Shown here: positions 6,934 to 48,982 of the stretch, one piece after another
How the letters are laid out: each line of letters opens with the position of its first letter
Position numbering within the stretch: the first letter of the stretch is position 1
Assembly (NCBI RefSeq): GCF_028289705.1
Contig: NZ_JANQOI010000032.1
Coordinates: 1-64,000, forward strand
Reading direction: 5' to 3'
DNA from: Pelagibius sp.
GTDB taxonomy: Bacteria > Pseudomonadota > Alphaproteobacteria > Kiloniellales > Kiloniellaceae
Length of the DNA stretch: 64,000 nucleotides
Translations under genes and position numbers: made by a program
Notes under the pieces: model-generated
The model's input: the letters and a program-made list of their open reading frames with translations, nothing else
What the model was told of the DNA's origin: nothing
Database searches by the model: none

Positions 6934-7021
6934 AGTGGTTAAGCCCGAACAACCAACAGGGTAGATTCTGTATGCCATTCCAACCCTCGGAAACACCCCG
7001 TCCCGGTTTCAAACGCGGCGA

Positions 7022-7205
7022 TGGCAGGTCTCCTGGCTCGCGGCTCATCGCTTCGCACCCGCCTTCCCGATCCTACCGGATCAGTGGCCTTATCGGGTGC
7101 ACGCTCGCCGCTTACAGTTGCGGGGGCAGCCACGGCTTTGGTCGCGGATCGACGGACCGCACCGTGTTCCCTTTTCATCCGCCGTCCCGTTGAAACGGCG
7201 GAACC
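7022..7205 (-). promoter_or_regulatory. Cobalamin (AdoCbl) riboswitch
   Basis: Read on the minus strand, the hallmark segments of the B12 element occur in order: AAAAGGGAACACGGTG (about 7160-7176), GCTGCCCCCGCAACTGTAAG (about 7111-7130), GCCACTG (about 7083-7090), and the 3' B12 box AGCCAGGAGACCTGCC (about 7023-7038). Together these identify the riboswitch with little ambiguity. It lies about 120 nt upstream of the DUF1636 gene and should repress the transporter operon when adenosylcobalamin is abundant. Exact 5' boundary is approximate. Confidence 0.95.
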
Positions 7206-7327
7206 ATCACTGCGCACTTTGGGGCAGTTCGATTGCGCTTGCAATCGATTTGACGTATCCGCGGCCGGGTCGGTCAGACCGGACAGTCTCAAGCAGATTG
7301 TGGAGAGAGTGTCTGCAGGGAGTACGC

Positions 7328-46655: not shown

Positions 46656-47201
46656 ATGAGCAGCTATTGCGACTTTGCCCCGGGCCACCCGGTCCATGCT
46701 CCCTACCACGACAATGAGTACGGCTTTCCGACGGACGACGAGGCGGTGCTGTTCGAGCGCCTGATCCTGGAAATCAACCAGGCGGGGCTCTCCTGGGAGC
46801 TGATGCTGAAGAAGCGGGATAGCTTCCGCGCCGCCTACGACGGTTTCGACGTCGATCGGGTGGCGGCCTATGGCGAAGACGACCGTGCGCGTCTGCTGAA
46901 CGATGCCGGCATCGTGCGCAACCGCCTGAAGGTCAATGCCGCCATCGAAAACGCCCGGCGGATCGTCGAGCTGCGCCGGGACTACGGCTCCTTCGCCGGC
47001 TGGATCGCTGCCCAGCACCCGCTGCCGAAGGAGGACTGGGTGAAGCTGTTCCGCAAGACCTTCAAGTTCACCGGCGGGGAAATTGTTGGCGAATTTCTGA
47101 TGAGCATTGGCTACCTGCCGGGCGCCCATCGCGAGGACTGCCCGGTCTTTCGCAGGATCGCCAGCCTGGCTCCCCCCTGGATGACTGCAGAAAAACGTTG
47201 A
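46656..47201 (+). CDS. tag: DNA-3-methyladenine glycosylase I
   Basis: Excises 3-methyladenine from alkylated DNA, starting base-excision repair. The 181-aa product has the Tag layout: YHDNEYGFP near 17-25, EINQAGLSWELMLKKRDSFRAAYDGFD, and NDAGIVRNRLKVNAAI. The zinc-snap ligands of the family appear conserved: an N-terminal Cys5 and His, and the HxxxC pair in GAHREDCPVF. It is 30 bp after DUF1467 and interrupts the usual DUF1467-proS adjacency. Confidence 0.9.
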   Translation: MSSYCDFAPGHPVHAPYHDNEYGFPTDDEAVLFERLILEINQAGLSWELMLKKRDSFRAAYDGFDVDRVAAYGEDDRARLLNDAGIVRNRLKVNAAIENARRIVELRRDYGSFAGWIAAQHPLPKEDWVKLFRKTFKFTGGEIVGEFLMSIGYLPGAHREDCPVFRRIASLAPPWMTAEKR

Positions 47202-47229
47202 AGTCTGCGCTTCAAGGTGCTGAAAACGC

Positions 47230-47257
47230 AAAAAAATAGGCAAGCACGAAGCTTGCC
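47230..47257 (-). terminator. Strong rho-independent terminator on the minus strand
   Basis: Read on the minus strand, GGCAAGC pairs with GCTTGCC (7 bp, 5-nt loop TTCGT) and is followed by TATTTTTTT. No minus-strand protein gene lies upstream of it, so it points to a non-coding transcript from the 47.26-47.4 kb interval. The plus-strand orientation lacks a T-run and would not serve tag. Confidence 0.8.
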
Positions 47258-47393
47258 ATCTCGAGTTCCCTGTCAGGTAGTGGGGCCTATTGCCAGGACC
47301 CTCTCATTCTTGGACGGCCCGCAGGCCGTCAAGAAGGCGTATCCACCCTAAACCTAGGCCGCGCTGCCGTTTCTTCGGCAGTTCTTACGGAGC
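47230..47393 (-). ncRNA. Candidate structured small RNA
   Basis: An approximately 164-nt minus-strand RNA is proposed, ending at the terminator. Going 5' to 3' it has a hairpin CTGCCG/CGGCAG (47364-47381), then GGCCTA/TAGGCC (47284-47289 with 47355-47360) enclosing two unpaired flanks of about 17-19 nt and a 12-bp stem TTCTTGACGGCC/GGCCGTCcAAGAA with loop TGCG (47307-47335), then the terminator hairpin. A -10-like GATAAT lies at 47400-47405. The 5' end is an estimate. The stem-bubble-stem shape recalls 6S RNA, but sequence identity to it was not recognised. Confidence 0.45.
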
Positions 47394-47439
47394 AATACTA
47401 TTATCCCAAAGCCTTCCTGTAGTCATCTCTTTTCTAACA

Positions 47440-47459
47440 ATGTTGTGCCGGCACAACAT
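47440..47459. promoter_or_regulatory. Perfect 20-bp palindrome, possible operator
   Basis: ATGTTGTGCCGGCACAACAT is perfectly self-complementary. It lies about 50 bases upstream of the candidate sRNA start on the minus strand and 145 bases before the 47604 gene. The size and symmetry fit a dimeric regulator site; the regulator is unknown. Confidence 0.5.
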
Positions 47460-47603
47460 GCTGCATTGCATCAATTTCCATAAAGCCGATTCAAGGCTGT
47501 AATCGCTTACAGAAATGGTGATTTACGGTAGTGGAAGGGAGCAGGCGATGGCCGCCGCGAACCCTTATTGCTTTGTTAACGCGCCGCGCCCTAGGGTCGG
47601 GCA

Positions 47604-48092
47604 ATGACCCCCAAATTGGACCGAAGCCGCCGCTGTCGCCGCCTGAGCCATGCTCTGGTGCTGTGCTTCGGCCTGCCGGCCGTGCTTCCGTCTGCCGCGC
47701 TGGGGGCCGATCCCTATGTGGTCATCAGCGAGGAGGACTGCAGCCGTCTGGTGCGTCATGTGCCCTCGGCGGATGTCGCCTATCGGCCGGGCATGGACGT
47801 TCGGGGCCGGCCGGTGGCACCGGCGGACCTGGGGGCGGAAGACCCGGCAGGCCCGCGCGCGCTGGTCCTGCCGCAGGCGGTGCTGATCCCCATCGAGGTC
47901 GAACTCTTCGAGCGCTTCGGCATCCCGCCCGGGGGCACGTCCTTCAAGGCCGATGCGCTGATCGGCGAGGTCACCGTCGACCTCGAAAGCGGGCAGGCGC
48001 TGTTCAACGGCCAGCCCTTGCAGAGCGAAGCAGAGGCGGAACTGGCCGCCCGCTGCCAGCGCATCATGCGCAACGGAAAAACGTCCAACTAG
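47604..48092 (+). CDS. Exported protein of unknown function
   Basis: A 162-aa precursor with an N-terminal basic region and signal peptide (LSHALVLCFGLPAVLPSAALGA, cleavage near residue 35). The mature part (YVVISEEDCSRLVRHVPSADVAYRPGMDVRGRPVAPADL, then LIGEVTVDLESGQALFNGQPL) has two cysteines that could form a disulfide. No domain is recognised. Its only ribosome-binding support is a weak GGGTCGGGC. It stands in the 2.4-kb block inserted between DUF1467 and proS. Confidence 0.65.
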   Translation: MTPKLDRSRRCRRLSHALVLCFGLPAVLPSAALGADPYVVISEEDCSRLVRHVPSADVAYRPGMDVRGRPVAPADLGAEDPAGPRALVLPQAVLIPIEVELFERFGIPPGGTSFKADALIGEVTVDLESGQALFNGQPLQSEAEAELAARCQRIMRNGKTSN

Positions 48093-48229: not shown

Positions 48230-48982
48230 ATGCGTTTCGTTGCTGTTTTTGCGTCCATTCTTCTTTTGTCCGCCTGCGGTCAGCGGGCCATCGACGATCC
48301 GGAAGCCAAGCTCTATTTCCAGCAGACGCCGAGCCCGAACGCCGGTGCCGGTCTTGCGGCCAAGGAGCCACCGAAGCTGGCGGACAAGGCCATCGTCATC
48401 CTGAGGGTCGACTACAACGCCCCCAACGACGACGAGTACAAGGCTGTTGCCGCGCTCTTTACGACTCAGCCGATCGATAAGCCCTATGCCGGCCGTGGGA
48501 TTTTCAGCGCAACCGGCATCGATGCCGCCCACCGCATCGGCTATCTGTCCGATGAGAACGTCTTCATGGCGGTAGCCGTCGAGCCGGGCACCTACCGCTA
48601 CATTCAAGGTGTGATCGGCGATCCGGCGTGGCGCTGGCCCCGGTTTTCTCCGACCCAGCGCATAGAGTTCACCGTGGAAGCGGGTGAGGCGGTCTATGTG
48701 GGCGATCTGACGCTCTACTTTAATGATTTCGACATTGCGCTGCACGAGAACGCCTTTGGGACGCGGTCCTGGCGCCCCCAGAGAAACGACTATCGCTTCT
48801 CGGTCACCGTGGACCAGACCGCCGCGCGGGCGTTCTACGACTCGCTGGAAATCGAAAACGCGCCGCCGCTTCAGGTCCGCCTGATGACCAACGAGCCCAT
48901 GCCCTACGTCGAGACCTATCAGAACCCGAACTGCAACGGTTTCTTCAATCCGCGCTACTCGTCGCGGGGATTCTGCAAATAG
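48230..48982 (+). CDS. Lipoprotein of unknown function
   Basis: A 250-aa putative lipoprotein: signal peptide MRFVAVFASILLLSAC with lipobox LSAC placing the lipidated Cys at residue 16. The mature protein predicts a beta-rich domain (AIVILRVDYNAPNDDEY, VEPGTYRYIQGVIG, EAGEAVYVGDLTLYF) reminiscent of DUF2846-like or carbohydrate-binding beta sandwiches, but no family is certain. GGAGAG precedes the ATG. It is between an exported unknown and proS and likely has its own promoter in the 137-bp gap. Confidence 0.72.
   Translation: MRFVAVFASILLLSACGQRAIDDPEAKLYFQQTPSPNAGAGLAAKEPPKLADKAIVILRVDYNAPNDDEYKAVAALFTTQPIDKPYAGRGIFSATGIDAAHRIGYLSDENVFMAVAVEPGTYRYIQGVIGDPAWRWPRFSPTQRIEFTVEAGEAVYVGDLTLYFNDFDIALHENAFGTRSWRPQRNDYRFSVTVDQTAARAFYDSLEIENAPPLQVRLMTNEPMPYVETYQNPNCNGFFNPRYSSRGFCK

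What the first reader, a model, noticed from the sequence alone, without database searches (positions are those of the whole stretch)
47230..47393. Orphan minus-strand terminator reveals a candidate structured sRNA
A textbook terminator on the minus strand has no protein gene feeding it. The 160 bases upstream contain nested complementary arms (12-bp apical stem, symmetric bubble, 6-bp closing stem) and a GATAAT box. The stem-bubble-stem shape is like 6S RNA, though I could not match its sequence.
Basis: partly seen in the sequence, partly recalled or inferred. Interest (0 to 1): 0.5.

Follow-up and report, generated by a model that had tools for sequence, protein, structure and literature searches.

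The report
Likely sponge for MmgR-type small RNAs
In the marine bacterium Pelagibius the flagged spot very probably encodes a small RNA, not a 6S RNA, that looks built to soak up the MmgR-type small RNAs linked in other bacteria to carbon storage and starvation.

Summary
The minus strand at about 47230-47393 carries an intrinsic terminator with no gene feeding it, hairpins that covary, and a conserved promoter region. It is present and syntenic (tag / RNA / unknown ORF / proS) in 8 of 8 held genomes of the genus, Pelagibius. The RNA model finds no convincing member elsewhere in the order or in a class sample.

It is not 6S.

The most conserved block (CGCGGCCYAGGUUUAGGGUGGANACGCC) is the near-complement of the seed of alpha-r8 sRNAs (MmgR/SisA, RF00519). 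The genus holds 14 of these above the Rfam cut-off. In all 14 same-genome pairs 22-24 of 25 positions pair, and each hybridises better than all 500 shuffles.

Best reading: a sponge RNA that sequesters the alpha-r8 siblings, working like CrfA of Caulobacter (2025). A PhaR-type operator lies upstream of this RNA, of one alpha-r8 type and of 2 of 3 phasin genes, suggesting but not showing coupling to polyhydroxybutyrate storage. Everything here is computed; I had no expression data.

The parts
47230..47393 (-). sRNA gene (about 155-165 nt); 5' end inferred from the -10-like box, 3' end from the terminator U-run
   Evidence: conserved in 8 of 8 genus genomes, alignment, covariance model R1
47336..47363 (-). 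predicted alpha-r8 binding site CGCGGCCTAGGTTTAGGGTGGATACGCC; 47336-47360 can pair at 23 of 25 positions with the type A and 22 of 25 with the type B alpha-r8 RNA of the same genome
   Evidence: pair counts; 24 of 29 columns invariant in the alignment block; duplex energies; two dimer minimum-energy folds of G000
47364..47381 (-). hairpin SL1 (CTGCCG-AAGAAA-CGGCAG)
   Evidence: 2 of 6 pairs with changes on both sides
   Evidence: 5 of 7 pairs with changes on both sides
47285..47299 (-). hairpin SL4
   Evidence: 4 of 5 pairs with changes on both sides
47264..47273 (-). second conserved block ACAGGGAACT; in 7 of 8 genomes (not the window's) followed by G, giving GGAACUG, complementary to CAGUUCC of the type B alpha-r8 RNAs (6 bp in the window's species)
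   Evidence: 10 of 14 columns invariant; sequences
47230..47257 (-). intrinsic terminator with U-run
   Evidence: stem kept in 8 of 8; U-run in 8 of 8
47400..47427 (-). promoter-like region: GATGAC (47422-47427), 16 nt, GATAAT (47400-47405)
   Evidence: conserved among the 8 genomes; not reported by the consensus scan
47456..47476 (-). PhaR-type operator AATTGATGCAATGCAGCATGT, exact match to the S. meliloti consensus; centre about -73 from the inferred start
   Evidence: only exact match in the 64-kb window; box begins 91-92 nt upstream of GAACTG in 8 of 8 genomes with 0-2 mismatches
46656..47201 (+). tag, DNA-3-methyladenine glycosylase, convergent neighbour
   Evidence: Pfam PF03352
47604..48092 (+). 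conserved ORF of unknown function, divergent neighbour
   Evidence: no Pfam match; present in the other 7 genomes

Best explanation
The locus encodes a minus-strand sRNA of about 160 nt that acts as a sponge for the alpha-r8 (MmgR/SisA) sibling sRNAs of Pelagibius. Its conserved block 47336-47363 mimics the ribosome-binding sites that alpha-r8 RNAs bind with their anti-Shine-Dalgarno seed UUUCCUCCCU. The pairing runs on into the 5' arm of the alpha-r8 terminator. Binding would mask the seed and probably speed decay of the alpha-r8 RNA, helped by Hfq, and so release alpha-r8 target mRNAs. A PhaR-type operator would tie its transcription to the polyhydroxybutyrate (PHB) state. Shown by computation: the conserved structured RNA, its complementarity to alpha-r8 RNAs, the presence of alpha-r8, phaR and hfq genes, and the operator-like box. 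Inferred: transcription, pairing in the cell, direction of the effect, and PhaR control.
For: Conserved and syntenic in 8 of 8 genus genomes (in G004 the tag side falls off the contig). Covariation in SL1, SL3 and SL4. Invariance is concentrated in the alpha-r8-complementary block: 24 of 29 columns, against 6 of 27 in SL3 and 5 of 36 in the SL4 region. Each of the 8 genomes has 1-2 alpha-r8 genes over the Rfam cut-off, 14 in all (RF00519; sequences). Over a fixed stretch of 25 nt, 22-24 positions pair in 14 of 14 same-genome pairs. Duplex energies of 14 of 14 pairs beat all 500 dinucleotide shuffles (z -4.9 to -6.8). Tiles over this RNA rank first among 6384 tiles of the window against both alpha-r8 types of the genome: -63.0 against -56.4 for the best other place (type A), -58.2 against -50.3 (type B). 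With internal structure counted, 12 of 14 pairs bind better than all 30 shuffles, and the two minimum-energy dimers shown (G000 with A and with B) pair this block with the alpha-r8 seed. In the window's species a C-to-U change in the block (GGCCUAGG) faces a G-to-A change in its type A alpha-r8 (CUUAGGCC), keeping the pair (one event). A sponge of just these sRNAs, CrfA, is shown in Caulobacter (PMC12559287; abstract, Results parts 1 and 2 of 4, and Discussion read). Hfq present. PhaR gene present. PhaR-type boxes upstream of this RNA and of type B alpha-r8 RNAs and of 2 of 3 phasin genes.
Against: No expression data. In the binding-energy test 2 of 14 pairs did not clearly beat 30 shuffles (G006 type A was beaten, G007 type A tied). 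A mismatch inside the seed duplex (U opposite U) stands at the same place in 14 of 14 pairs. The block is also partly tied up in predicted internal pairings. Five weaker RF00519 matches in G001, G005 and G006, below the cut-off, were not tested for pairing. One of the five covariation measures, further pair types, is not above shuffles (129 of 500). The direction of effect (sponge, or target of alpha-r8) cannot be told from sequence. The PhaR box centre at about -73 is odd for simple repression, and the motif is loose: 19 exact sites in the genome against 13 for the reversed control pattern.
Confidence: 0.72

Rival explanations
1. The arrow points the other way: the RNA is an sRNA with its own mRNA targets, and alpha-r8 RNAs bind it in order to control it.
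For: The duplex is symmetric in sequence. In Caulobacter SisA also lowers full-length CrfA (PMC12559287). SL1, SL3, SL4 and block 2 are kept beyond what seed capture needs.
Against: The strongest conservation is the alpha-r8 site itself. No second conserved block that looks single-stranded other than block 2, which may also pair with type B alpha-r8.
Confidence: 0.13
2. A direct mRNA-binding sRNA whose likeness to a ribosome-binding site is incidental to alpha-r8.
For: CrfA was first described as such (stated in PMC12559287). The block is purine-rich. mRNA targets of this RNA were not searched for.
Against: Complementarity runs past the anti-Shine-Dalgarno seed through AAACUUGGGCC of alpha-r8 and ranks first among 6384 tiles. 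One change is matched between sponge and alpha-r8.
Confidence: 0.08
3. A relic: an antisense copy of an alpha-r8 gene or a non-functional transcript.
For: The block aligns to the reverse strand of alpha-r8 genes; the model's weak hits elsewhere include such reverse strands (L040, L113, L022, L023, L025, L036).
Against: Covariation, terminator, promoter region and synteny kept in 8 genomes; the matched DNA of the other 7 is 76-81% identical to the window.
Confidence: 0.04
4. A 6S-type RNA that binds RNA polymerase.
For: A hairpin with internal loops can be drawn in the single sequence.
Against: 6S of this genome is elsewhere; no Rfam hit; the closing stem has no covariation support.
Confidence: 0.01

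Closest known systems
CrfA of Caulobacter crescentus (sponge of SisA-D; PMC12559287)
   Same: An sRNA complementary to the conserved seed UUUCCUCCCU of the alpha-r8 siblings; predicted pairing block partly in a small hairpin ([quoted passage not shown] alpha-r8 siblings and hfq in the genome.
   Different: Another bacterial order (Caulobacter's order is recalled). About 25 nt of complementarity reaching into the alpha-r8 terminator arm, against protected residues G49-C63 in CrfA. PhaR-type box here, while CrfA's transcriptional control is undetermined.
alpha-r8 / MmgR / SisA family (Rfam RF00519, suhB)
   Same: Same sequence core, but as the complement; both this RNA and the type B alpha-r8 genes carry PhaR-type boxes.
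   Different: Opposite polarity: this RNA carries the anti-seed and does not match RF00519.
6S RNA (Rfam RF00013)
   Same: Length of about 160 nt and a terminator hairpin.
   Different: No covariation support for a closing stem; no Rfam match; the true 6S is on contig C190.
QrrX of Vibrio (sponge of Qrr siblings; described in PMC12559287)
   Same: One sponge RNA against a family of sibling sRNAs.
   Different: Unrelated sRNAs and bacteria; no sequence compared here.

Membership tests
6S RNA (RF00013) | Covariance-model match | tested here: not met
   No Rfam match up to E = 10 in 47190-47610; the genome's 6S is at G000:C190:14252-14409
6S RNA (RF00013) | Closing stem, central bubble, apical stem | tested here: not met
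alpha-r8 / MmgR (RF00519) | UUUCCUCCCU seed and terminator on the RNA strand | tested here: not met
   The RNA carries the complement; no RF00519 match at the locus
CrfA-type sponge of alpha-r8 RNAs | Base-pairing potential with the conserved alpha-r8 seed | tested here: met
   14 of 14 pairs beat all 500 shuffles; 22-24 of 25 positions pair in 14 of 14; with internal structure counted 12 of 14 beat all 30 shuffles
CrfA-type sponge of alpha-r8 RNAs | alpha-r8 genes and Hfq encoded in the same genome | tested here: met
   alpha-r8 over cut-off in 8 of 8 genus genomes, two copies in 6 and one in 2; Hfq in the window's genome
CrfA-type sponge of alpha-r8 RNAs | Sequence homology to CrfA | not tested
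   No CrfA sequence found in the main text by the terms; the original CrfA paper is not held
CrfA-type sponge of alpha-r8 RNAs | Lowers alpha-r8 levels, binds Hfq, induced by carbon starvation | not testable with these tools
   needs experiments
PhaR-controlled promoters | Operator matching WNWD2NYGCRNYGCRNH2WNW (PMC12542648) | tested here: inconclusive
   0 mismatches in 1, 1 in 6 and 2 in 1 of 8 genomes, fixed spacing; motif is loose; binding not tested

The most novel reading that the evidence does not exclude
A PHB-sensing double RNA switch: PhaR controls both the FGase-linked (type B) alpha-r8 sRNA and, through a separate operator, the sponge that titrates all alpha-r8 siblings, so that the storage state sets the alpha-r8 pool from both sides. 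The sponge would have arisen independently of CrfA, making sponging of alpha-r8 RNAs a recurrent solution in Alphaproteobacteria.
Probability: 0.3. Interest if true: 0.7.

Novelty: new variant of a known kind. Interest (0 to 1): 0.56.

Why it matters
alpha-r8 sRNAs were found in 54 of 61 genomes of this order at E up to 0.001, 40 of 61 over the Rfam cut-off, and PMC12559287 reports the family in all Alphaproteobacteria except Rickettsiales. Only one sponge for them, CrfA, turned up in the paper searches made here (listings). A second sponge, in another order and with a PhaR-type operator, would show that alpha-r8 control by sponging is not peculiar to Caulobacter. It would also link it to carbon storage, where MmgR itself acts. 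Two named strains, P. litoralis DSM 21314 and P. marinus NBU2595, carry it, so it can be tested directly.

Tried and rejected
Rfam on the whole window and on the locus with loose thresholds: nothing at the locus. 6S: rejected. Long-range helix predicted by RNAalifold (columns 45-57 with 139-153): hardly varies, so no covariation for or against. DNA search beyond the genus: 0 of 50 other relatives. Model R1 in the family (23 genomes, E up to 10: 8 sponge loci and 21 weak places), in the order (61 genomes, E up to 0.1: the 8 genus genomes plus 2 weak hits) and in a class sample (385 genomes, E up to 0.01: G000 plus 2 weak hits). I printed all 25 weak places. Six are reverse strands of alpha-r8 genes (L040, L113, L022, L023, L025, L036); in the others my search for the core pattern found nothing, and I take them for chance. 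The searches of more than 40 genomes used stricter filters that lose weak matches.

Rows dropped: one search gave 17 sites of TTCCNCCCTAAAC in the genus; 14 are the alpha-r8 genes used, 2 are the reverse strand of the sponge itself (L049, L052) and 1 (L063) is not like alpha-r8. One search gave 5 further RF00519 matches in G001, G005 and G006 below the cut-off; I did not use them. Of the 19 exact PhaR-type sites 15 have loci; I listed ORFs around those 15 and ran Pfam on genes near 6 of them.

TTGCAWTGCAA as operator pattern: 0 hits in the window's genome, although 7 other species of the genus have TTGCAATGC at the box; replaced by the published PhaR consensus. Block 2 (GGAACUG/CAGUUCC) as a second pairing site: kept as a suggestion only, 6-7 bp, and part of the alpha-r8 side looks to lie in a stem. 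Coding in the RNA: no ORF of at least 20 aa lies within it on its own strand in the window, and hairpin loops differ in length between species. Papers: no hit for Pelagibius with small RNA; mmgR with sponge lists CrfA's paper as the only one on an alpha-r8 sponge (listing).

Full report
WHAT IS THERE. The minus strand of 47230-47393 holds a gene-sized intergenic element between tag (46656-47201, Pfam Adenine_glyco) and a conserved ORF of unknown function (47604-48092), with proS beyond. The terminator is as described. The fold of the single sequence is only mildly better than chance (z -2.23), so the case rests on comparison.

CONSERVATION. A DNA search of 58 genomes found the element in 8 of 8 genomes of the same genus and in 0 of 50 others. 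A pattern scan of named genomes returned 6 records: 4 titled Pelagibius (P. litoralis, P. marinus and two metagenome-assembled genomes), one 'Rhodospirillales bacterium' and one 'Kiloniellaceae bacterium'. Their contig lengths equal those of six of the genus genomes, hence the genus name. The order tag - RNA - ORF - proS is kept in the other 7 genus genomes, except that the contig of G004 ends before tag. The alignment of 8 sequences gives four local hairpins plus the terminator. Three hairpins (SL1, SL3, SL4) show pairs changed on both sides: 11 pairs and 19 cells, each reached by 0 of 500 shuffles; one measure, further pair types, is not above shuffles (129 of 500). The fourth hairpin, inside the conserved block, and the terminator show no change on both sides. 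The long-range helix of the RNAalifold model cannot be judged because its columns hardly vary.

NOT 6S. The window's genome has a 6S RNA over the Rfam cut-off on contig C190, and Rfam gives nothing for this locus up to E = 10.

THE LEAD. A weak hit of the covariance model in another family (L040, E 0.085) turned out to be the reverse strand of an alpha-r8 sRNA gene, RF00519 'Makes More Granules Regulator RNA', beside an N-formylglutamate amidohydrolase (FGase) gene. PMC12559287 gives that as the usual alpha-r8 location. The window RNA therefore carries the complement of the alpha-r8 core.

THE PARTNERS. A search of 61 genomes of the order finds RF00519 in 54 at E up to 0.001 (40 over the cut-off), and in all 8 genus genomes over the cut-off, 14 genes in all. 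I sort the 14 into two types. Type B (7 genes) has CAGUUCCAUAGGGCAUUUCCUCCCUAAACUUGGGCCGCG and, in the window's genome, sits beside the FGase gene (L053). Type A (7 genes) has GGGCGUUUCCUCCCUAAACUU(A/G)GGCCACC. Over the 25 nt facing 47336-47360, type A pairs at 23-24 and type B at 22-23 positions in all 14 same-genome pairs, counting one or two G-U pairs. The U.U miss in the middle of the seed stands in 14 of 14.

TESTS OF COMPLEMENTARITY. Duplex energy (no cost for internal structure) of each sponge with its own genome's alpha-r8 core: 14 of 14 pairs are better than all 500 dinucleotide shuffles (z -4.9 to -6.8). Against 6384 tiles of 160 nt from both strands of the 64-kb window, the tiles over this RNA rank first for both alpha-r8 types of the genome (-63.0 against -56.4 for the best other place, and -58.2 against -50.3). 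When the cost of opening internal structure is counted, 12 of 14 pairs bind better than all 30 shuffles; G006 type A does not, and G007 type A ties with the best shuffle. The two minimum-energy dimers printed (window RNA with its type A and type B) join this block to the alpha-r8 seed. Invariant columns are 24 of 29 in the block, 10 of 14 in block 2, 18 of 28 at the terminator, 9 of 19 in SL1, 6 of 19 at the 5' end, 6 of 27 in SL3 and 5 of 36 in the SL4 region. One change in the window's species (C to U in the block) is matched by a change in its type A alpha-r8 (G to A), which keeps the pair. This is a single event, so only suggestive. A second block, GGGAACUG in 7 of 8 genomes (not the window's), could pair in the right order with CAGUUCC of type B; this too is only a suggestion.

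MECHANISM. In Caulobacter the sRNA CrfA pairs with the seed UUUCCUCCCU of four alpha-r8 siblings (SisA-D), lowers SisA with the help of Hfq and frees target mRNAs during carbon starvation (PMC12559287; abstract, Results parts 1 and 2 of 4, and Discussion read). The same logic fits here: seed complement, siblings present, Hfq present. The sponge reading is inference from anatomy. The reverse reading, that alpha-r8 controls this RNA, cannot be excluded by sequence, and in Caulobacter both RNAs lower each other. I did not search for mRNA targets of this RNA.

CONTROL OF THE SPONGE. The box at 47456-47476 matches the S. meliloti PhaR consensus without mismatch and is the only exact match in the window. 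It has 1 mismatch in 6 and 2 in 1 of the other 7 genomes, and begins 91-92 nt upstream of GAACTG in 8 of 8. Within 250 nt upstream of the alpha-r8 seed, 7 of 7 type B genes have a box with 0-2 mismatches and 7 of 7 type A genes have none better than 3; for scale, the 64-kb window holds 6 places with at most 1 mismatch and 19 with 2. In the window's genome 2 of 3 phasin genes have boxes with 0-1 mismatch, about 40-200 nt upstream of the likely start codons, and a phaR gene is present. In S. meliloti PhaR binds the mmgR and phasin promoters (PMC12542648, passages only), and mmgR transcription is repressed by AniA, which is PhaR (PMC7143759, passages only). Against this: the consensus is loose (19 exact sites in the genome, 13 for the reversed pattern), and the box lies at about -73, so whether PhaR acts here, and in which sense, is open.

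RANGE. Model R1 finds nothing convincing outside the genus in 23 family genomes, 61 order genomes or a class sample of 385. alpha-r8 is thus far wider than this sponge.

VERDICT. A real, conserved sRNA candidate without an Rfam match; most likely a sponge for alpha-r8 sRNAs; not 6S.

Noticed in passing
window 47440-47459: Perfect 20-bp palindrome ATGTTGTGCCGGCACAACAT just downstream of, and overlapping by 4 bases, the PhaR-type box; by eye not at this place in the other 7 genomes, so perhaps an extra operator in this species.
   Followed up: partly
window 7006-7223 (minus): Cobalamin riboswitch, 147 bits.
   Followed up: no
window 48230-48982: ORF between the unknown ORF and proS, with no Pfam match and a lipoprotein-like signal by eye; tblastn at E up to 1e-4 found no counterpart in the other 7 genus loci.
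   Followed up: partly
L053 (G000:C10) and the other type B alpha-r8 loci: Two PhaR-type boxes with 0-2 mismatches upstream of the type B alpha-r8 sRNA in G000, G002, G005, G001 and G004 (in G007 and G003 the two have 2 and 3), pointing to conserved PhaR control of this alpha-r8 copy.
   Followed up: partly
L078 (G000:C151:68910-68930): An exact PhaR-type box lies about 28 bases past the stop of a minus-strand response-regulator ORF, so not in its promoter; what it serves is unclear.
   Followed up: no
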